Below are positions 6,929 through 16,820 of a DNA stretch of 64,000 nucleotides, piece after piece. The translations under genes were made by a program, and so were the position numbers. Numbering within the stretch: position 1 is the stretch's first letter; each line of letters starts with the position of its first letter. The notes beneath the pieces were generated by a model. The model ran no database searches. It was not told the origin of the DNA and was given only the letters and a program-made list of their open reading frames with translations. This DNA is from Rhodovulum marinum (lineage in GTDB: Bacteria; Pseudomonadota; Alphaproteobacteria; Rhodobacterales; Rhodobacteraceae). Location: positions 1 through 64,000 of the forward strand of contig NZ_SLXP01000013.1 in NCBI RefSeq assembly GCF_004343075.1. Direction: 5' to 3'.

Positions 6929-7034
6929 GCCGTGACCTGCCACTGAACTTTCATCCAGCCGCGACCGGAGCCCGATTGGTTCTGCTCTGCTCCCCAACCT
7001 TGGACCGCCCGTGGGCAGAGTTTTCCGGCTACGC

Positions 7035-7838
7035 TCAGGGTGACGGGCTGGTGGCGCCCCCCGATTTGGTCAGCATGATCGGAACCTTATTGCCGATCGC
7101 GCCGTGTGGCCGTTCCTCGTTGTAGTATCTACGCCAAGCCTCCAGCTTTTCGGCGGCGTCCGCAAGGGTCATGAACCAGTGCTGGTTCAGGCATTCCGTC
7201 CGGAACCGACCGTTGAATGCCTCAATGAAGGCGTTGTCCGTCGGTTTGCCTGGGCGCGAGAAGTCCAGAACTACGCCACGCTGATAGACCCAGAGATCCA
7301 TGTCGCACGACACAAACTCGGTGCCCTGATCGACCCGGACCGTCGCCGGATAGCCTGCTTTCCGGCAAACCCGATCAAGCGTCGCGACGACGTCTTCGCC
7401 GCGATAGCTGAAACGTGCATCCAGAACCGGCACGTAACGCGAGAAGGTATCGACAACGGTGAGGACGCGGATCTTCTTGCCTGTCGCCAGTTGGTCATGC
7501 ACGAAGTCCATAGCCCAGACCTGGTTTGGGCCGACCGCTTCGACCCGATCGTCGCGCAACTTAGCCTTCACGCGGCGCCTGGGTGTCTTGTTTCTCAGCT
7601 GCAAACCCAACTCCCTGTAAATGCGGTAGACTTTCTTGATGTTGATGCCCCAGCCCTCGCGCTCCAGTAGGACGTGGACGCGTCGATAGCCGTAGCGGAC
7701 CCGAGTCTCGCAGATTTCCCGGATCCGTTTCTCGACGGCTGCCTGATCGGTGCGGCGGGACTTGTAGTGAAACGTCGAGCGGTCGAATCCGATGGCCCCA
7801 CAAGCCTGACGGATCGAGACCGCCCAATCGCGGCACAT
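7035..7838 (-). CDS. IS3-family transposase OrfB (DDE integrase part)
   Basis: The catalytic half of the IS3 transposase, 267 residues from its first ATG. In the natural product it is read as an OrfAB fusion that enters this frame about 48 bp earlier. DDE residues are visible: Asp in VWAMDFVHD, Asp in VRVDQGTEF and Glu in AFIEAFNGRFRTE. The N-terminal HTH_21-type region includes STFHYKSRR. The frame is intact, so the element may be active. The stop codon lies just inside the left inverted repeat. Confidence 0.93.
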   Translation of the reverse strand: MCRDWAVSIRQACGAIGFDRSTFHYKSRRTDQAAVEKRIREICETRVRYGYRRVHVLLEREGWGINIKKVYRIYRELGLQLRNKTPRRRVKAKLRDDRVEAVGPNQVWAMDFVHDQLATGKKIRVLTVVDTFSRYVPVLDARFSYRGEDVVATLDRVCRKAGYPATVRVDQGTEFVSCDMDLWVYQRGVVLDFSRPGKPTDNAFIEAFNGRFRTECLNQHWFMTLADAAEKLEAWRRYYNEERPHGAIGNKVPIMLTKSGGATSPSP

Positions 7839-7870
7839 CCCACGAATGAGTTCGCGCGTGCGACCAGGCT

Positions 7871-8137
7871 TCAGAGCTTTCGGCGGACGACGTCCTGCAG
7901 CATCTCGCGGTCGAGCGTCAGGTCAGCCACGATCTTCTTCAGCCGCGCGTTCTCGTCCTCGAGTTGCTTCAGCCTGCGCATCTCGTCGGGCAGAAGCCCC
8001 GCATACTTCTTCTTCCAGGCAAAGGAGGTCGCTTGGCTGATCCCCGCCTTGCGACAGATCTCGGCAACGGGCGTGCCTTCTTCGCCCTGCTTCAGGATGA
8101 ACGCCTTCTGCGCGTCCGAAAATTTGCTCGCCTTCAT
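7871..8137 (-). CDS. IS3-family transposase OrfA
   Basis: An 88-residue DNA-binding protein that starts MKASKFSDAQKAFIL. It has a helix-turn-helix (VAEICRKAGISQATS) followed by a leucine-rich coiled coil (RRLKQLEDENARLKKIVADL), the usual OrfA layout. ATG 8137 is preferred over an upstream in-frame start because family members begin MKxSKF. The end overlaps the OrfB frame at a CGAAAG slip site, where -1 frameshifting would make OrfAB. Confidence 0.93.
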   Translation of the reverse strand: MKASKFSDAQKAFILKQGEEGTPVAEICRKAGISQATSFAWKKKYAGLLPDEMRRLKQLEDENARLKKIVADLTLDREMLQDVVRRKL

Positions 8138-8323
8138 TCGATTCCGCTCCTCTCCCAGCCGGGAAAGCGTAGCGGAAAACTCCAGCTTCAAACGGTCCAG
8201 TTATCGGGAATCAGATCACTGCTTCACAAATGTCAAGGGTGCAGATTTGGTCTCCAGCATGGTCTACGCCTCCAGCTCTCATCAGCGAAAACTTAAGGGA
8301 AACAGAGGCTTACCTGTTGGTAA

Positions 8324-8339
8324 TGGTGCCCGGGGGCGG
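8324..8339. repeat. Attachment site copy (distal end of island)
   Basis: A 16-bp exact copy of the last bases of tRNA-Phe (same orientation as 38694-38709). Outside these 16 bp the tRNA sequence is not continued, so this is not a second tRNA gene. A chance exact match of this length in 64 kb is very unlikely. Confidence 0.82.
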
Positions 8340-8376
8340 CATAAATTGTTGATTTTATTATAAAAAGTTACGAGGC

Positions 8377-8432
8377 GGTGGGACTTTTTTCTTTCACCAT
8401 GTTTATTGGGTTTTTTCGGATAAGTGTCCCAC
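8377..8432. repeat. GTCCCAC inverted repeat pair, left island end
   Basis: GTGGGAC (8378-8384, followed by TTTTTT) and GTCCCAC (8426-8432, followed by TTTT) face each other in an AT-rich stretch beside the attachment site. The same two motifs occur at the other island end (38612-38618 and 38640-38646). They are candidates for integrase arm-type or excisionase binding sites. Confidence 0.5.
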
Positions 8433-8556
8433 TTTTCCGATGGGGATTGAGGCCGGAGTTCACTGCTCGGGCCGGTGCCGCATCGCCGCAGCGCCTGGAC
8501 ATGACGCCGGCGATCCTTAGGAATGGTGACAGTAAAGAAGATCAATCTGGACGAGT

Positions 8557-11406
8557 GTGACTAACCCGCGCTTCACCTGCCCGATCTGCATGAACCGTGA
8601 GGCCGGACTGATCCCCGCCCCTCGGCATGTGCCGGCGTGGGATGACCTGACCCTCTCGGAGCAGATGGCGATGCTGGCCGAAGTGGGCACCGCACTTGGT
8701 CGCGGCACGGCTGGTTTTGCTGCCTCATCCGATCACGGCCATTTTCACCTGCGGGAAGCCAGTACGGCGCGTCTGACAACCGGCGGCCGCGATCCGCTTC
8801 TGCCGCTGCTCGCCGAGCGTCTCGACACCGCGCACTCGGTCGACTTGGCAATTGCCTTCGCCATGGACAGCGGCGTGGCCCTGCTTGAGCCCTGGTTCCG
8901 AGAGCTGCTGGCGCGCGGCGGGCGGCTCAGGATCGTGGTGGGCGACTATCTCGACACGACCGACCCGACGGCGTTGGCGCGCCTGCTGGACCTGGAAGGC
9001 GCCGAGCTCTTCGTGTTCGAAACGGGAGGCCTCAGCTTTCACCCGAAGGCCTGGCTGTTCCGCGCCGCCGATGCACGCGGGGCGGCGATCGTCGGCAGTT
9101 CGAACCTGTCTCAATCGGCGCTGACCGATGGTGTGGAATGGAACCTGCATTTCGAGGATGCGGCAGACAGCGTCGGAGCGGCCTTCGAGGACCTGCTGGC
9201 GCGACCTGAGGTCAAGCCGCTGACGGCGGCGTGGATCGATGCCTATGCCAAACGCCGCAGGGCAAGGCCAATGCCCGAGTTCACTGCTCGCATCGTGGCC
9301 GAGGAAGGCCCTCCACCCGAGCCGCACACGATCCAGCAGGAGGCGCTGGCGGCCCTTGCAAAAAGCCGATCGAACGGCCACCGCGCCGGGCTTGTCGTGC
9401 TGGCCACCGGGCTGGGTAAGACCTGGCTCGCCGCCTTCGACACGATCCGTGCCAGGGCGGGCCGCATCCTCTTCGTTGCCCATCGCGACGAAATTCTGAC
9501 CCAAGCGATGGCGGCCTTTCGCAAGGTGCGCCCCGAAGCCAAGCTCGGCCGCTACACTGGCACCGAGAAGGAGGCAGATTCAGAAATCCTCTTCGCCTCG
9601 GTTCAGACACTTGGCCGCGTCGGTCACTTGCGCCAATTCGACCGGGACCATTTCGACTATATCGTGGTTGATGAATTCCACCACGCCGCGGCCCGCACCT
9701 ACCAGAAGCTGATCGAGCATTTCACGCCCGGCTTCCTGCTCGGCCTGACCGCTACGCCCGACCGGACGGATGGCGCCGACTTGCTTGGCCTTTGCGGCGA
9801 AAACCTCGTCTACGAATGCGACCTGTTTCGCGGGATCGACGCGGGACATCTGTCGCCCTTCCACTATTTCGGCGTTCCGGATGACGTGGATTACGCACAA
9901 ATCCCCTGGCGTTCCGGCCAGTTCGACCCGACCGCGCTAGACGCAGCCCTGGCCACCGAGGCGCGGGCGCTAAATGCGTTGGAACAATACCGCAAGCGCG
10001 CAACCGGCCCAGCGATCGGCTTTTGCTGTTCTATGCGCCACGCCGACTACATGGCGGATTACTTCCGCACCGCCGGTCTGAAGGCTGTTGCCGTCCATTC
10101 GGGCCAAAGCTCCGCACCTCGAGCAAGTTCCCTGGCAGCGCTTGGTCGCGGCGAGATCGACATCCTCTTCGCGGTCGACATGTTCAACGAAGGCGTGGAC
10201 GTGCCCGAGATAGGCACCGTGCTAATGCTGCGCCCCACCGAAAGCGCGATTATCTGGCTGCAGCAACTCGGCCGCGGCCTGCGCCGCGTCGAGGGAAAGG
10301 TGCTGCAGGTGATCGACTATATCGGCAACCACCGCAGCTTCCTGACCAAGGTCGCGACCCTTCTGCAGGCCGGCGCAGGGGATCGCTCGATCTCGACCAA
10401 GCTGGAGGCGCTTCAAGCTGGCGAATTCCAGATGCCGAAGGGTTGCGAGATCACCTATGAGCTCGAGGTCATGGACATCTTGCGCAGTTTGCTCCGCCCG
10501 AAGGAAGGCGCGGCGGAACTCGAAGCCTTCTACGTCGATTTCAGGGACCGGAACGGGATCCGCCCGACGGCAGTCGAAGTCTTCCGCAACGGCTTCGATC
10601 CCCGCGCTTCTGGCCACGGCGGCTGGTTCGACTTCGTCCGGGACATGGGTGACCCAATGCCCGAACGTCCCTTCGCCACCCACGGCCGGTTGCTGCGCGA
10701 GTTGGAGCGTCCCAAGGGGCTGTCCCGATCCGCGTTGACCGGCTTGCACGACGTCGTAGCCGGACGCCCACCGAGCGAAGGGGCGTCAGAGCTGGCCTTC
10801 AACCCGCACCTGGCGCAGGGCCGCGGCGGCTTTCGGCTGGCGCGACCTGACTCCTCCGGCGACTTGGAACCGCTTGTGCGCGAGTTGGTCGAATGGCGTC
10901 TGGCGGAGACGCCCGCCCTGCGCGAGGCCGCCGAGGCATCCGCGACCTTTGTCGGCAAGCCGAAAGAACTGGCGCTTTGGCAGCGCTATTACGTTCCTGA
11001 CATCGCCGGGTTCTTTGGCGAAGAGTACAAGCAAAACCTCTGGCGCACCGGTATGAAGGCGCTGCCAGAAAAGAAGATCATGATCCTTTTCGCAAATGTC
11101 TCGACCCAGGACCTGACCTACGAAAACGCGTTTCTCGACCCGTCACGACTGAAATGGTTCAGCCAGAACCAGACGCGGCAGGATAGCAAGCACGGCCGGG
11201 TCATCAACGGCGAGGAAGGGCACGAAGTGCACCTTTTCATCCGCCGCGGGAACAAGGTGAACGGCAAGGTCAATCCGTTCATCTATTGTGGGCATCCCAG
11301 GTTCGCCGGATGGAAAGGTGAGAAGCCAATCGAAGTACAGTGGGATTTAGTGTCGCCGGTACCGCGCGAGCTTTGGGCGGAGCTCGGAATTCCAAATCAA
11401 GACTGA
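8557..11406 (+). CDS. PLD-like nuclease / SF2 helicase fusion with DUF3427
   Basis: A 949-residue fusion. Residues about 75-200 form a phospholipase-D-like nuclease unit with one HxK (His162, Lys164) and a following GSSN (180-183). An SF2 helicase comes next: Walker A GLGKT (285-289), DEFH (372-375), LTATPDR, and motif VI in QQLGRGLRR. The C-terminal ~150 residues look like DUF3427 (YYVPDIAGFFGEE, then GHEVHLFIRR). The first ~70 residues carry CPIC and GHFHL and resemble a shortened HIT domain. GTG 8557 is the only common start after an in-frame stop; ATG 8590 is the alternative, and neither has a clear ribosome site. Such fusions are often found among defence genes. It is the first gene of the island and is followed 58 bp later by a second PLD-helicase. 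A nucleic-acid-processing role is well supported; an anti-phage role is inference. Confidence 0.87.
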   Translation: MTNPRFTCPICMNREAGLIPAPRHVPAWDDLTLSEQMAMLAEVGTALGRGTAGFAASSDHGHFHLREASTARLTTGGRDPLLPLLAERLDTAHSVDLAIAFAMDSGVALLEPWFRELLARGGRLRIVVGDYLDTTDPTALARLLDLEGAELFVFETGGLSFHPKAWLFRAADARGAAIVGSSNLSQSALTDGVEWNLHFEDAADSVGAAFEDLLARPEVKPLTAAWIDAYAKRRRARPMPEFTARIVAEEGPPPEPHTIQQEALAALAKSRSNGHRAGLVVLATGLGKTWLAAFDTIRARAGRILFVAHRDEILTQAMAAFRKVRPEAKLGRYTGTEKEADSEILFASVQTLGRVGHLRQFDRDHFDYIVVDEFHHAAARTYQKLIEHFTPGFLLGLTATPDRTDGADLLGLCGENLVYECDLFRGIDAGHLSPFHYFGVPDDVDYAQIPWRSGQFDPTALDAALATEARALNALEQYRKRATGPAIGFCCSMRHADYMADYFRTAGLKAVAVHSGQSSAPRASSLAALGRGEIDILFAVDMFNEGVDVPEIGTVLMLRPTESAIIWLQQLGRGLRRVEGKVLQVIDYIGNHRSFLTKVATLLQAGAGDRSISTKLEALQAGEFQMPKGCEITYELEVMDILRSLLRPKEGAAELEAFYVDFRDRNGIRPTAVEVFRNGFDPRASGHGGWFDFVRDMGDPMPERPFATHGRLLRELERPKGLSRSALTGLHDVVAGRPPSEGASELAFNPHLAQGRGGFRLARPDSSGDLEPLVRELVEWRLAETPALREAAEASATFVGKPKELALWQRYYVPDIAGFFGEEYKQNLWRTGMKALPEKKIMILFANVSTQDLTYENAFLDPSRLKWFSQNQTRQDSKHGRVINGEEGHEVHLFIRRGNKVNGKVNPFIYCGHPRFAGWKGEKPIEVQWDLVSPVPRELWAELGIPNQD

Positions 11407-11464
11407 TAGCTTAGAAAAAACCAAATTTAGCTTTGCCCCCAGCGGCATAGGAAGACAACGGCAC

Positions 11465-14400
11465 ATGGCAACCACAGAGCGGCAGGGACTGATTTCACGG
11501 TTCTTCTCGCGCGGAGGCGATTCTGATCGAGATGAGCGCGCGACCGAAGTGCCTCCTGCGTCTGGACATGAGGCCTGGGGCGACAATGCAACGCGCTCGG
11601 TAAGTGACTTGGTCAAGTCCGTTCTGAGGCAACCGAGTTGTTTGATTGTCACAGGATACCAGGACTTCCTATCTTCTCTGACAATCTTGCTCGAAGCGGT
11701 CGACAAACTTGACGAGCGCCCAGAGGGCAGCATCCGCATCGTATTTGGCTCCAACTCCGAAACACGACAGGCTCTAGGCGGCAGCGGCCGGTCAGTGGCC
11801 GAAGAAGCGCGCCAGCATTTCCTTGGCGCAAGGGGCTTTTCGGTTGTTGATTTGGCCGATCTGCGCGCAGTGCTTGCGATGGACGCAATCGAGCGCGGGA
11901 TCATCAAGTTCCGTATTTTCGACCCTGATCTGGCAGAAGAAAAACTAGGGCGCCGTCCACCAATGCTTCACGCGAAGCTTTTTGTAGGTGGGGACAAGGC
12001 ACTTTCGGGAAGTGCCAATTTCTCGATCAACGGTTTGCGCCGCAATCTGGAATTCATGGACGACGCCGATGCCTGGCCCGAACTTGCGACTGCGCGTCGA
12101 ACGGCCGCTGAGCAGTATTGGGACATGGGGCGCGATTGGACTGAAACAGCGCTGGAAATCCTGCGAGCGCTGATCCGCCTTGTCTCACCCGAAGAAGCGG
12201 TGGCCAGAACAGTTCACGAAGCCACAACCTTCACCCCCTGGCGTGTCGCAGGCGAAACCAGCGCCGGACGTCCGCCTCAACCCTTCCAGGCCGATCTTGT
12301 CTATGAGGCTGCAGGAACGGTCTATGAACACGGCTTTGCCTTTGTCGAAGCGCCAACTGGTGCCGGGAAAACCGACATCGGAAAACACCTGGCGACGGTT
12401 CTACCGGTCAGCCATGGGCAGACGGTCTTTTCCTGGGGAGAGCGCGCCGATCAACAACGGCTTGGCTCGCTCGCCCTGATACCTGCCAGCGTTCTGAAGA
12501 ACTGGACAACGAACGCGCCTGCGAACTTCAAACCCATCAAGCACAGTCACCTGTCGCGGCGAGGTAAGGAGGAGACTTCAGAACTCGAAGAGATAAACCG
12601 GGCGGTCCGTTCGTCTGCATCAATGATCGTTGATGAAAGCCACCGGCTGAGCTCGCGATACCTTGCGCCTTCTGCACGCTCGCTTGTTTTCGAACGCAGC
12701 CCGGCGATCTGGACCGCCTGCTTGTCTGCCACGCTCATGGGAAACCAAGGTCTGGATGGCTTGCTCGCATTCCATGAGAAACGCGCCTCGATCTACGTGC
12801 CTCCGCCCATGACGGAGCAGATCAACCAACACATGGCCAAAGTTCGAAAGCGTGGAGAACTTGTGCGCTACCTCGAACACATGAACCGCCGGATCGAAGA
12901 TCAAAGCGTGCAGGACGACCTGTTCGACAGCGCGGAAGCACTACAGGTCGAAGTCAACAAAGTCGAACGCCAGCTAGAGACCGGCGGGCTGCAAATCAGT
13001 GCGCTTCAGGAAGGATTGGCCGACGCCCTGGCGCCGTACGTCGTGCGGCGCCAACGGGATTGCATTGGGGAGAGTGCGGATCGAAAGTCCGGCGCTTTCG
13101 TTTACCCAACGATCCGAAGCCACCGAGAGGATACGGCGTTGAGTGATCATCAGCGCCAAATTATTGAGCGAATCAAGGCATTGGCGGAATGCATTACGAC
13201 TGGGGTGACCCTTGTTTCTGCTGATCCCCAACGCGCCGCACACACAGAAATCAAATTCCACGACAAATCGCGCATTCACATCCGGAACTTCCTCGCTTTG
13301 CTGCGCGCGTCGATAACCTTTGCACGCGAAGAATGGTCCAGAGAGCGCGACAGCGAAGCCGATCAGCGAGGGCGGGCATCAATCGGAGAAAACCTAAGAC
13401 GCGCCGAGAAACAAAACGCCCGCGGCCTTGCCATTCCGGACGGAGTTTTGCCCGAGGAAGTTGATGTCGAAGCCGACGAAAGTGAAACACCGATTTGCGA
13501 TCGGATCAGTAGGCTTCTGAATCATCTCAGCCTCGACAGCATTGATGAAGCCCGGGCCGGTGCCATGCGAGACATCCTTCGAAAGCATGGCCATGCCATC
13601 TTCCTTGCTGAACGGGTCGGCGTGCTCGAGGTTTATGCCAGGCTTCTTGCTGGGCAACGCGGACGAGGGCCTGAGGTCTTCGTGGTCGCACCTGGTGCAA
13701 GGATCAAAACCGGCAAGAAGCTGCATCACATCCGATCTGGCGCAGATGCGCAGGAGTATTTCGGCATCGACGGGAAACATGTCGCCCCGCTGAAGCCCCG
13801 GGCCATGTTCCTCACATTCCAAATGGCCGAAGGAATCAACCTCCAAATCGCCTCTGCGCTTGGGATCATTGGCGTCACGTCCGACGTCAAGAGCCTCATT
13901 CAGGGGTTGGGGCGGATCGACCGGATCGACAGCCCCAACTCCCGCATCCACTACTACACCTTCGACCTTCCCGGTCTAGTTCTGTCATCAGACCACAAGG
14001 CGCGCGCTCGTGTCGCGAGCATCGCTCTCCTTTCAGGTGTTGGCGCCGAAGACCTACCATCAGAGCTGGTTGAGTTTTCTGCCGGTGATCTGACCGATCT
14101 TGTTCTAGAACAGGTCAAGAAACCGCGCATCCTCCGCCCCAACAACTACTTTGATCAGCTTGAAGCCCTTCGGCGAGAATTGCCGGCTGACGTTCTAGAC
14201 CGGGTCTGGAACGCAAACGCTCGCGGTCTTTGGGGTGCCGAACTTTGTCTTCTGTCCTCAGTTGAGCCAGTCACCATCCTCCTCTTGGGCGGTCGCACAG
14301 GCAGCCCCCATGACCCTACCGTTCTACCGCCTCGTTTGATTGCCGTTCGAGATGTTGATGGGAGCGCAGAGATCATTGGCGACCAGGTCGAAGCAGCTAG

Positions 14401-14914
14401 ACACCTATCCGCCGCCTATGCCGAAACGCGCCGGCGAGGCATGCAAAGCCACCGCCCAAAACTGAACGCGATATCAGCTACGTTCAGCAGGCTCGGCAGC
14501 ACGCTTGCGCATCTGACCCACTGGGATATCCGACCGGCTCGAACGGTTTCACTTCTTTCGTCCCTCGCAAATTTCCTGTCAGGACACGACACCGGTGATG
14601 CTGGTCAAGAGCTCTTCGGTTACTTGACTCTGCCGACACTGGAAAAGCTGGCAGAAGCATGGGCACACGAACTCGATGTGTTCTGGATCGAGGCGAAGGA
14701 AACGGTTAGCCAAAGAAGCGCGTCTGGCATTGAAATCCCTGACTATCTTGGGATCGACGCGATTTACCGAGCTTTCCAAGAGCAACCAGACGATGTCCGC
14801 TCAGCTGTAAAGAACAGGATGAGGGAACTCTTGGTTCGATGCACGGCATTGTCGGACGGGCAACCGATAGATGTTCTCAGCCGGGTAGCGGTTATCTTCG
14901 AAGCTAGACCGTAG
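11465..14914 (+). CDS. PLD-like nuclease / SNF2-type helicase fusion
   Basis: An 1149-residue protein. Residues about 45-225 are PLD-like, with HAK (169-171) and GSAN (182-185). A helicase core follows: Walker A TGAGKT (298-303), DESH (390-393), LSATLMGN, and in the second RecA domain QGLGRIDRIDS. The spacing between the helicase halves is large, with a charged, probably coiled insertion (IEDQSVQDDLFDSAEALQVE region). The C-terminal ~300 residues match nothing I know. ATG 11465 has AGGAAG upstream. It follows the other PLD-helicase after 58 bp on the same strand, so they are likely co-transcribed and act together. Its base composition is less GC-biased than that of its neighbours. No methyltransferase is present, so this is not an ordinary restriction-modification locus. 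Confidence 0.85.
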   Translation: MATTERQGLISRFFSRGGDSDRDERATEVPPASGHEAWGDNATRSVSDLVKSVLRQPSCLIVTGYQDFLSSLTILLEAVDKLDERPEGSIRIVFGSNSETRQALGGSGRSVAEEARQHFLGARGFSVVDLADLRAVLAMDAIERGIIKFRIFDPDLAEEKLGRRPPMLHAKLFVGGDKALSGSANFSINGLRRNLEFMDDADAWPELATARRTAAEQYWDMGRDWTETALEILRALIRLVSPEEAVARTVHEATTFTPWRVAGETSAGRPPQPFQADLVYEAAGTVYEHGFAFVEAPTGAGKTDIGKHLATVLPVSHGQTVFSWGERADQQRLGSLALIPASVLKNWTTNAPANFKPIKHSHLSRRGKEETSELEEINRAVRSSASMIVDESHRLSSRYLAPSARSLVFERSPAIWTACLSATLMGNQGLDGLLAFHEKRASIYVPPPMTEQINQHMAKVRKRGELVRYLEHMNRRIEDQSVQDDLFDSAEALQVEVNKVERQLETGGLQISALQEGLADALAPYVVRRQRDCIGESADRKSGAFVYPTIRSHREDTALSDHQRQIIERIKALAECITTGVTLVSADPQRAAHTEIKFHDKSRIHIRNFLALLRASITFAREEWSRERDSEADQRGRASIGENLRRAEKQNARGLAIPDGVLPEEVDVEADESETPICDRISRLLNHLSLDSIDEARAGAMRDILRKHGHAIFLAERVGVLEVYARLLAGQRGRGPEVFVVAPGARIKTGKKLHHIRSGADAQEYFGIDGKHVAPLKPRAMFLTFQMAEGINLQIASALGIIGVTSDVKSLIQGLGRIDRIDSPNSRIHYYTFDLPGLVLSSDHKARARVASIALLSGVGAEDLPSELVEFSAGDLTDLVLEQVKKPRILRPNNYFDQLEALRRELPADVLDRVWNANARGLWGAELCLLSSVEPVTILLLGGRTGSPHDPTVLPPRLIAVRDVDGSAEIIGDQVEAARHLSAAYAETRRRGMQSHRPKLNAISATFSRLGSTLAHLTHWDIRPARTVSLLSSLANFLSGHDTGDAGQELFGYLTLPTLEKLAEAWAHELDVFWIEAKETVSQRSASGIEIPDYLGIDAIYRAFQEQPDDVRSAVKNRMRELLVRCTALSDGQPIDVLSRVAVIFEARP

Positions 14915-15495
14915 GCCTGAACTTTCTCCGAGCCCTGCCAAGATTGACTATAGGGAGTTGACGCTCTCGGCCCTAACCGGCTATTGACCACCGCCTCGCT
15001 CCGCCGCGGCGCGGCCCGTCATTCCAGCCATTCGCTGCGCCCGCGAAGACACGCAGCCGGCGAACCGCACCTCGCGGGGCATTGGGGATAGCTGGCAAAA
15101 ACCGTAAGATTTCGTAGGGCAGCCCAAATATGACGTTCAAGTCAATTGCGGCACAAACCGAGCCCGTGAGGCTGGGGCTCGAATCCACCATGCGGCGGCA
15201 CGGCGATAAACCGACTCTCACGCTGTGACGCCATGAGTATGTCGGCCGACGACCGGCAGCCTAGTCGAGACATACGTGACGAGCGCAGCATCTGCGTCGC
15301 TGCAGGCTCGAGACCCGATATGCGAATCCCCTGGAGCGTGTGCCAGATTCCCGCACGTCGCCGAGGCGGGATGCGCTGCCCTCTCGTTTTTTCGGCGAAC
15401 TGCCGCGTTTCGCGGCGAAGCTTCCCACATGTCGACGGAGTTGACCGTCATGCAATCAAGGTCGCAAGAACGGGGACCGGCCTTACTGCCTTTCA
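14915..15495. other. Intergenic region after the helicase pair
   Basis: About 580 bp between the plus-strand helicase and the minus-strand anti-sigma gene. No credible gene, tRNA or terminator with a T-tract was found. The short open frames on both strands overlap each other and lack family features. Confidence 0.45.
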
Positions 15496-16302
15496 TCAGC
15501 GCATCGCACTTGCAAGCATTGACAGCCGCGCAGTTTGGTTCTCGCCGACGACGGCGTAGTCCACGCCCTCCCGCGTCCAGTAGGCGACCGGCTGCCCCGA
15601 GACCGAACTGACCGCATAGGAGTAGAGCGGCTCGCCCTCGGGATGCGGCATCATCGACAAGGTGATCTGCCTGCCGGTGTCGGTCTCTTCGTAAGTGAAC
15701 TGCGCGATCGGGCCATCCTCGCCCTTCACCAGACGCCCGCCGATGACCCGAAGGCCGAGTTCTTCGAGCCGGGGGCTTTCGATCTTGCGCTGCATCCGGT
15801 CGGATACCCAGTCGAGCGTGGCCTGCATCCGATCGTCGGAGATCTCGAATTCCTCGACACCGCTGTGGTCATAGACATTGTGAAGCACGGTCGCCTGGGT
15901 GACGAAACGGGGTTGGCCCTCGGCTGCGGGCGGACCGGAGACGTAAACCGCATGCCCTCCCCAGCCCGCGACGAAGATCGCGACACTGGCGGCGACCTGC
16001 CGGAACGCCGGCCGCATCACCATGCCGCGCACCCGCCCGGCGCGAATGCGCCTTGCCAGCTCGCGACCGAGCAGTTCGGTGCGCAGATCCGCGGGCCTGT
16101 CATCGGCGGCGGCCGCGGCTTCGCGGATCAGGTCGCGGTCGCGCGCCCAACCGGCCACCGTTTCCCGCTGCGCGGCATCGCCCGCCAGGCGCGCCTCGAT
16201 CTCGGCCATGCGGTCGGGCGACAGCTTGCCATCGACGTAGGCATGCAGGTCGGGGTCGAGCGCGATATCGAACTCGGAATTGGTGTCTGTGTCGGTCTTC
16301 AT
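15496..16302 (-). CDS. Anti-sigma factor, membrane-anchored
   Basis: A likely anti-sigma factor for the ECF sigma gene directly upstream. The cytoplasmic N-terminus has the zinc-less anti-sigma fold features LHAYVDGKLSPDRMAEIEARL, a charged linker, and one hydrophobic segment near residues 105-120 (VAASVAIFVAGWGGHAVYV). A periplasmic domain of about 150 residues follows. ATG 16302 has AAAGGCG upstream; GTG 16317 is the alternative and overlaps the sigma stop as GTGA. Either way the two genes are translationally coupled. The signal it senses is unknown. Confidence 0.85.
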   Translation of the reverse strand: MKTDTDTNSEFDIALDPDLHAYVDGKLSPDRMAEIEARLAGDAAQRETVAGWARDRDLIREAAAAADDRPADLRTELLGRELARRIRAGRVRGMVMRPAFRQVAASVAIFVAGWGGHAVYVSGPPAAEGQPRFVTQATVLHNVYDHSGVEEFEISDDRMQATLDWVSDRMQRKIESPRLEELGLRVIGGRLVKGEDGPIAQFTYEETDTGRQITLSMMPHPEGEPLYSYAVSSVSGQPVAYWTREGVDYAVVGENQTARLSMLASAMR

Positions 16303-16313
16303 GTCGTCGCCTT

Positions 16314-16820
16314 TCACGAAATCAGGCTGATCTTCGAGCGCTTGACCTCGCCGAGGATCCTGCGCAGTGCCTGCCGGCCGCGTCCGAGCCGCGACATGAA
16401 CGTGCCCAGCGGCACGTCGAGGCTTCGGGCGGCTTCGGCATAGCTCATGTCCTCCAGGGCCACGAGGACGATCGGCCGACGCTGTGCCTCGGGCAACCGG
16501 TCGAGCGCGTCCAGCACCTGCTGCAATTCGACGTGGCGGTGCTGGCGTTCGGGCGCGATCGGCTCGGGCAGGTCCGGCTCTGCGGCCTTGCGCACCTGCG
16601 CCCGGCGCAGCCCGCTGACATGCGTGTTGTGCATGATGCGGAACAGCCAGGGGCGCAGGTCGCTCGAAGGGTGCAGGCTGTCCACCTTGGCAATCGCCTT
16701 GACGAGTGTCTCTTGCACGAGGTCTTCGGCCTCGTGATGGTCGCGTGTCAGCACCAGTGCATAGCGGCGCAAACTGGCAATATGGGTCCGAACCTCCGAC
16801 TTCGGCGATGCTGGCAGCAC
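16314..16820 (-). CDS. ECF-type RNA polymerase sigma factor
   Basis: A 168-residue extracytoplasmic-function sigma factor. Region 2 is visible as RDHHEAEDLVQETLVKAI and WLFRIMHNTH; region 4 as LPEAQRRPIVLVALEDMSYAEAARSLDVPLGTFMSRLGRGRQ. It is directly upstream of its anti-sigma gene. A GGGATGA-N14-GCGT element lies 28-52 bp before its start and recurs before three other transcription units nearby, so it probably drives its own synthesis and theirs. An AAGGAGG ribosome site precedes ATG 16820. Confidence 0.92.
   Translation of the reverse strand: MLPASPKSEVRTHIASLRRYALVLTRDHHEAEDLVQETLVKAIAKVDSLHPSSDLRPWLFRIMHNTHVSGLRRAQVRKAAEPDLPEPIAPERQHRHVELQQVLDALDRLPEAQRRPIVLVALEDMSYAEAARSLDVPLGTFMSRLGRGRQALRRILGEVKRSKISLIS

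What the first reader, a model, noticed from the sequence alone, without database searches (positions are those of the whole stretch)
8557..14914. Adjacent pair of PLD-nuclease/helicase fusions, a candidate two-gene defence system
Two large proteins (949 and 1149 residues), both PLD-like plus SF2 helicase but of different helicase branches and different C-termini (DUF3427 versus unknown), are encoded 58 bp apart at the edge of an island, with no methyltransferase. Paired enzymes of the same architecture suggest one complex or sequential steps on DNA.
Basis: partly seen in the sequence, partly recalled or inferred. Interest (0 to 1): 0.78.

Follow-up and report, generated by a model that had tools for sequence, protein, structure and literature searches.

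The report
Restriction enzyme with helicase-nuclease partner gene
Two neighbouring genes that one family of bacteria carries as a movable block probably form a DNA-destroying defence unit: the first resembles a known kind of enzyme that cuts chemically marked foreign DNA, and the second is an unnamed nuclease-motor protein whose relatives also sit beside other kinds of DNA-cutting defence enzyme.

Summary
Gene A (8557-11406, 949 aa) and gene B (11465-14914, 1149 aa) lie 58 bp apart on one strand; each joins PLD-nuclease and SF2-motor motifs, from different SF2 branches. A is homologous to the type IV restriction enzyme SauUSI (PDB 7clg, E 9e-95; PADLOC mREase_IV; DUF3427), so half of the pair is a known kind. 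B passes no curated cut-off in Pfam or NCBIfam; profile comparison makes it a divergent PLD-SNF2 protein, full-length only in Rhodobacteraceae here. The two form a real cassette: A is directly upstream of B in 11 of 17 B loci from one scan, plus the window, another genome and a plasmid. The pair is not obligate. Earlier-branching B proteins sit beside McrBC, GmrSD or type I R-M genes (one locus each); two B copies inside the A-paired clade lack A; and one A (94% identical) has a RecQ-UvrD fusion in B's place, the homology breaking at A's stop codon. Best reading: B is a swappable helicase-nuclease that finishes off DNA attacked by restriction enzymes. Activity and modification dependence are untested. 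New variant of a known kind.

The parts
8320..8556 (+). Upstream region of A that travels with the cassette in the window's subgroup (homology starts at 8320-8327)
   Evidence: blastn of window 7000-16500 to 20 loci: alignments start at 8320-8327 in L002, L003, L004, L014, L060 and L096, at 8219 in L011, and at the A start in L005-L010 and L062
8557..11406 (+). Gene A: SauUSI-like PLD nuclease - SF2 ATPase - DUF3427 protein, 949 aa, GTG start
11407..11464 (+). 58-bp A-B gap; 57-66 bp in the 10 other A-B loci measured; gene exchange junctions lie here or at the A stop
11465..14914 (+). Gene B: PLD nuclease - divergent SNF2-like SF2 motor, C-terminal region of unknown fold, 1149 aa
14915..14980 (.). 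3' end of the cassette
   Evidence: Homology to L002, L003, L004 and L014 ends at 14944-14980; to L060 at 14903
7035..8191 (-). IS3-type transposase ORF pair next to the left end of the cassette (neighbour, not part of the unit)
   Evidence: rve, rve_3, HTH_21 and HTH_Tnp_1 Pfam hits; 'IS3' is my reading of them

Best explanation
A-B is a mobile two-gene restriction cassette. A is a SauUSI-like enzyme: it recognises DNA through its C-terminal DUF3427 domain, probably DNA carrying a modified base, translocates with its SF2 motor and cuts with its dimerised PLD domain (inferred from SauUSI; not shown here). B is a separate PLD-SNF2 helicase-nuclease that acts on the same DNA after or alongside A: it tracks along the ends, gaps or stalled forks left by restriction and degrades them, so that the invader cannot be repaired or religated. 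B is a general accessory of restriction enzymes rather than a dedicated subunit of A: related B proteins accompany McrBC, GmrSD and a type I system, and a RecQ-UvrD fusion can take B's place. Shown: the cassette, intact motifs, exchange of neighbours at gene boundaries. Inferred: enzymatic activities, order of action, anti-phage or anti-plasmid role.
For: A homology to SauUSI. Cassette kept with varied flanks. A and B distances correlate (r 0.87 over the 66 pairs of 12 A-B loci; plain co-inheritance would give this too). B next to McrB-McrC, 13 bp apart on the same strand (L047), next to GmrSD (L013), after hsdR-hsdM-hsdS (L012 and its apparent copy L065). In L096 an A at 94% identity, inside the B-paired clade (support 86/90), has a RecQ-UvrD fusion 150 bp downstream and the homology breaks at the A stop. 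The fusion is adjacent to A in 8 of 23 A genomes without adjacent B (one partial; strand arrangement varies), and is in 12 of 28 A genomes (own genome left out) against 4 of 51 without A (Fisher p 7e-4, no correction for relatedness). B motifs invariant to 32% identity.
Against: No activity or expression data. Three of six intact close B copies without A (L015, L016, L046) have no restriction neighbour that I recognised (L015 and L016 by Pfam on some of their ORFs; L046 by eye), nor have the six intact divergent B (32-35%), whose neighbours were searched only in part; so B may work alone. L015 and L016 are metagenome-assembled contigs of 9-11 kb, where mis-assembly cannot be excluded. The McrBC, GmrSD and type I links rest on one locus each and could be ordinary defence-island clustering, a base rate I did not measure. 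SauUSI needs no partner (PMC3874153, passages). The fusion is also in 4 of 51 genomes without A, in some A genomes it is on another contig, and the window's own genome has a partial copy elsewhere.
Confidence: 0.5

Rival explanations
1. Two autonomous restriction systems that share a cassette: A cuts one kind of modified DNA, B is an independent PLD-SNF2 nuclease with its own recognition through its C-terminal region, and they are linked only because islands collect defence genes.
For: A alone and B alone both occur. B is intact in L015 and L016, which lie inside the A-paired B clade. A 32-35% B clade lives without A next to it.
Against: The 57-66 bp spacing is kept in the 11 A-B loci measured, across two subgroups, and the pair moves as a block. 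Another helicase fusion right behind A in L096 suggests a shared role.
Confidence: 0.3
2. Obligate heteromeric complex of two PLD-motor proteins, the PLD domains pairing as in SauUSI dimers or within CglI/NgoAVII-like assemblies.
For: Both carry a PLD domain, and the SauUSI PLD domain dimerises (PMC7913695, passages). Constant gene order and near-constant gap.
Against: Each occurs without the other; the two profiles align only weakly and only in the motor (probability 5.9).
Confidence: 0.12
3. The pair or B alone is a DNA repair or replication-fork factor rather than defence.
For: SNF2 and RecQ-UvrD motors occur in repair (general knowledge); one divergent B is next to SbcC- and SbcD-like genes (L051, identified by eye only).
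Against: Patchy distribution (20 of 394 family genomes); a plasmid copy; neighbours in various B loci include SIR2-HerA, Zorya, NACHT, HipA and integrase genes.
Confidence: 0.06

Closest known systems
[quoted passage not shown]
   Same: A: PLD-SF2 region aligns over residues 76-594 at E 9e-95, about the same length (949 and 953), DUF3427 at the C terminus
   Different: The alignment starts at A residue 76 and SauUSI residue 35, so A has about 40 more N-terminal residues, with CPIC and HxH motifs; the Glu of SauUSI HxK(X)4E is Arg169 in all 11 A sequences aligned; A has a linked second gene
Type-2 BREX-related (BR) system HKD + Swi2/Snf2 helicase effector (PMC12839542, passages)
   Same: B: N-terminal HKD/PLD followed by an SNF2-type motor in one chain
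   Different: No DUF499 ATPase, DUF3780 or N6-methyltransferase among the genes near B that were examined; B has no direct Helicase_C or SNF2 Pfam hit
PADLOC C3a139 (HKD+Snf2) and the PLD-SNF2 plus type ISP pair in L056
   Same: B profile aligns to the L056 PLD-SNF2 over PLD and motor lobe 1, probability 98.6
   Different: The L056 partner is a type ISP-like methyltransferase protein with a SLFN AlbA_2 domain
CglI / NgoAVII restriction systems
   Same: PLD nuclease together with an SF2 motor
   Different: There the two activities are on separate chains and a methyltransferase is present (PMC4267653, start of abstract in listing; PMC7913695, passages)
Druantia III with Zorya II synergy (PMC13192584, abstract)
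   Same: Precedent for a helicase-nuclease whose DNA intermediates link two defence systems
   Different: No relation to A or B was tested; Zorya genes were seen beside one broken B copy (L048)

Membership tests
SauUSI-type type IV restriction enzyme (gene A) | Homology across PLD nuclease and SF2 ATPase to SauUSI | tested here: met
   hmmsearch E 8.6e-95 to 7clg, residues 76-594; PADLOC mREase_IV 8.4e-116
SauUSI-type type IV restriction enzyme (gene A) | PLD HxK with GSxN | tested here: met
   H162-P-K164 and GSSN invariant in 11 sequences
SauUSI-type type IV restriction enzyme (gene A) | Glu of HxK(X)4E | tested here: not met
   Arg169 in all 11; so A is called SauUSI-like, not a proven SauUSI enzyme
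SauUSI-type type IV restriction enzyme (gene A) | C-terminal DUF3427 target recognition domain | tested here: met
   63.5 bits against cut-off 27.7, residues 802-943; the SRA fold itself was not modelled
SauUSI-type type IV restriction enzyme (gene A) | Cleavage depends on m5C or hm5C | not testable with these tools
   The window genome has one m5C-methylase (PF00145) match; of the 7 genomes with the closest A, 3 have matches and 4 none
Type-2 BREX-related system (gene B) | N-terminal HKD nuclease plus Swi2/Snf2 motor in one chain | tested here: inconclusive
   Profile match to a PLD-SNF2 protein, 98.6; no direct SNF2 Pfam hit on B
Type-2 BREX-related system (gene B) | DUF499, DUF3780 and N6-methyltransferase in the locus | tested here: not met
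   Only A and B are common to the 12 A-B loci clustered; Pfam on 10 window ORFs near the pair shows none; the rest of the window was not scanned
DISARM | drmA/drmB/drmC gene set | tested here: not met
   B has only weak DrmC-like PLD hits, best E 1.6e-5; nothing of the kind among the 10 neighbours
CglI/NgoAVII | PLD nuclease and helicase as separate subunits with a methyltransferase | tested here: not met
   Each protein carries both motif sets; no methyltransferase among the 10 neighbours
Mokosh | Mokosh proteins (recalled as RNA helicase plus PLD) | tested here: inconclusive
   None among the 9 PADLOC families listed for B, or the best 25 of 31 listed for A; whether that library holds them was not checked

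The most novel reading that the evidence does not exclude
B founds a new kind of defence component: a transferable post-restriction helicase-nuclease that plugs into unrelated restriction systems (SauUSI-like, McrBC, GmrSD, type I) and is interchangeable with a RecQ-UvrD fusion, so that restriction in these bacteria is a two-step, modular cut-and-destroy process.
Probability: 0.25. Interest if true: 0.75.

Novelty: new variant of a known kind. Interest (0 to 1): 0.55.

Why it matters
What happens to phage or plasmid DNA after the first restriction cut is usually left to host exonucleases such as RecBCD (general knowledge). A dedicated helicase-nuclease encoded next to the restriction enzyme, and swapped between enzyme families, would show that some restriction systems carry their own clean-up step, and would make that step testable with two genes.

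Tried and rejected
The whole-protein AlphaFold model of B from 17 close sequences was poor (mean pLDDT 46) and was not used. A model of the B C-terminal region (304 aa, pLDDT 57.6) gave 130 PDB matches at E <= 10 but none at E <= 0.001, so the C-terminal fold stays unknown. Searching divergent B in viral contigs gave nothing; the phage records had no match. Class (385 genomes) and phylum (398 genomes) searches at E <= 1e-8 found B only in the window's own family. A HIT-like reading of the A N terminus (pattern recalled) had no support in Pfam or PDB searches and is left as a remark. An exonuclease reading of the N terminus of the RecQ-UvrD fusion (recalled motif) had no support. L056 was dropped from the B family: it is a different PLD-SNF2 protein. 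L017, L018, L055, L058, L059 and L064 hold fragments, L057 is cut by its contig end, and L048 and L052 are broken B copies; these were not counted as intact B. L065 looks like a copy of L012 (same ORF lengths and B start). The promoter-like scan found 1 site against 1.2 expected, and 9 terminator-like sites against 7.7, uninformative. Paper searches for DUF3427 (2 papers), SauUSI with RecQ (0) and RecQ with UvrD and type IV restriction (4 papers, none on this by title) showed no description of the pair; most subscription papers are not held.
Full report
Observation. The nuclease and motor motifs that I tabulated are present in both and, apart from small substitutions beside the catalytic residues, constant in the sequences aligned (11 for A, 13 for B, the window's included).

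Gene A is not new in kind. Pfam sees ResIII, Helicase_C and DUF3427 above cut-off and PLDc_2 below it; PADLOC's best model is mREase_IV, E 8.4e-116; the best PDB chain is 7clg, 953 aa, E 8.6e-95 with the A profile. That 7clg is SauUSI rests on recall, its length and one occurrence of the code in PMC7913695. That paper (passages only) describes SauUSI as a PLD-nuclease dimer with an SF2 ATPase, a coupler and an SRA-like target domain that cuts S(5mC)NGS and shreds the DNA between two sites. PMC3874153 (passages) names DUF3427 as the C-terminal domain and says that one polypeptide is enough. One difference was tested: the Glu of SauUSI's HxK(X)4E is Arg169 in all 11 A sequences. I therefore call A SauUSI-like; modification dependence is untested.

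Gene B has no named family. It passes no cut-off in Pfam or NCBIfam, has only weak PADLOC hits (best E 3.4e-6, a DpdK PLD model) and PHROG hits (best E 0.021), and no PDB sequence match at E <= 0.1 for the single sequence or better than 0.22 for the profile. The C-terminal fold of B remains unknown.

Distribution. One genome-contig scan with B gave 17 loci, 16 with titles of Rhodobacteraceae-type genera or that family (genera placed from general knowledge) and one titled only Proteobacteria. A is directly upstream in 11 of 17 (L002-L011, L014; in L002 A is split into two frames); of the other six, L017 and L018 hold fragments. To these add the window, G035 (L060) and a 16,643-bp Neotabrizicola plasmid, on which A ends 66 bp before the record end and B begins at its start (L062); this last adjacency assumes a circular plasmid, whereas the record is labelled linear. 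That makes 14 A-B records. In the family sample B matched 20 of 394 genomes at E <= 1e-5, some by fragments only, and A 29 of 394 at E <= 1e-60. Of the seven genomes with the closest A, six have B next door (one of them the plasmid just named). Of the 22 others, B is in one (G179), on another contig. At E <= 1e-8 B was in no genome outside the family among 385 class-level and 398 phylum-level genomes. Of 5 plasmid records matched by B, 2 are Tolypothrix (cyanobacteria), with 24% identity over a fifth of the query, a distant relation at most.

A mobile block. DNA homology between the window and five A-B loci runs from about 8320 to 14903-14980 at about 90% (L002, L003, L004, L014, L060). In my clustering of ORFs (a simple caller of my own) from 12 A-B loci no third gene is common to all; the commonest other cluster, an integrase in L007, is in 6 of the 12. 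L005, L007 and L009 share an HTH gene upstream of A, and four loci share HipA-type genes. The A-B gap is 57-66 bp in the 10 other loci measured. On the window's right side the same-genus genome G363 is colinear from base 15121.

Partner exchange, the most telling result. (i) In L096 (G173) an A 94% identical to the window's, nested among B-paired A proteins (support 86/90, not decisive), has no B; homology stops at window 11393, at the A stop, and a 1710-aa RecQ-UvrD fusion follows 150 bp later on the same strand. The same fusion is adjacent to more distant A proteins: in all, 8 of 23 A genomes without adjacent B, one of them partial; its strand relative to A varies, and several contigs are too short to judge. 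Over 80 genomes it is in 13 of 29 A genomes (the window's own only as a partial copy on another contig; four others have it on another contig than A or far from it) and 4 of 51 without A; without the own genome, 12 of 28 against 4 of 51, p 7e-4. Two of the copies (G279, G330) are counted with one in-frame stop. No correction for relatedness was made. (ii) L015 and L016, both from metagenome-assembled genomes, carry intact B without A; homology to the window starts at 11444 and 11462, the A-B boundary, and both lie within the A-paired B clade. (iii) Earlier-branching B proteins have other companions: McrB-McrC (L047, 57% identity), GmrSD 132 bp downstream (L013, 63%), and hsdR-hsdM-hsdS upstream (L012, 67%, and its apparent copy L065). 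In the tree these branch outside the SauUSI-linked clade, some on long branches whose place is unsure. L046 (68%) has no restriction gene nearby that I recognised by eye; L048 is a broken B near Zorya genes. The divergent 32-35% clade (L049, L050, L051, L053, L054, L063) has no A beside it; not all of its neighbours were searched.

Interpretation. That a SauUSI-like enzyme, McrBC, GmrSD and a type I system have each been found beside B, and that a RecQ-UvrD motor takes B's place behind A, fits a helicase-nuclease that processes DNA under attack by a restriction enzyme. The weak points are single-locus links, island clustering as a base rate that I did not measure, and B copies that stand alone. 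A census with a permutation test and a two-gene phage and plasmid assay would decide.

Known or new. PLD-SNF2 effectors are described in Type-2 BREX-related systems (PMC12839542, passages), with ATPase, DUF3780 and methyltransferase genes that were not seen here. McrBC census work mentions a DISARM-like association (PMC11090510, passages). Searches for DUF3427 (2 papers), SauUSI with RecQ (0), PLD with helicase, McrBC and defence islands (20 of 35 listed), SNF2 with phospholipase D (11) and Rhodobacteraceae with such terms (10 of 16 listed) listed no paper whose title or shown abstract describes this pair.

Noticed in passing
L096:2414-7546, L097:9998-15271, L101:1883-6841, L102:10778-16366, also L106, L108, L110: A 1650-1860 aa RecQ-UvrD fusion recurs next to SauUSI-like genes in Rhodobacteraceae; in several loci a ~196-aa class I methyltransferase gene lies just upstream of the SauUSI-like gene.
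   Followed up: partly
window 8557-8781 (A residues 1-75): N-terminal segment before the part that aligns to SauUSI, with CPIC, APRH and HxH motifs; looks HIT-like by eye but has no database support.
   Followed up: partly
L056:1109-8273: A PLD-SNF2 protein next to a type ISP-like methyltransferase protein with a SLFN AlbA_2 domain.
   Followed up: no
L062 (NZ_CP069374.1, 16,643 bp): A small plasmid carries the A-B pair together with SIR2 and HerA genes, an HNH endonuclease and a Fic protein.
   Followed up: partly
L006:13913-20338: A 2141-aa NACHT protein lies next to the A-B pair.
   Followed up: no
window 7035-8191: IS3-type two-ORF insertion sequence beside the left end of the cassette; a related ORF pair follows the A-B pair in L011 (clusters c26, c27).
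   Followed up: no
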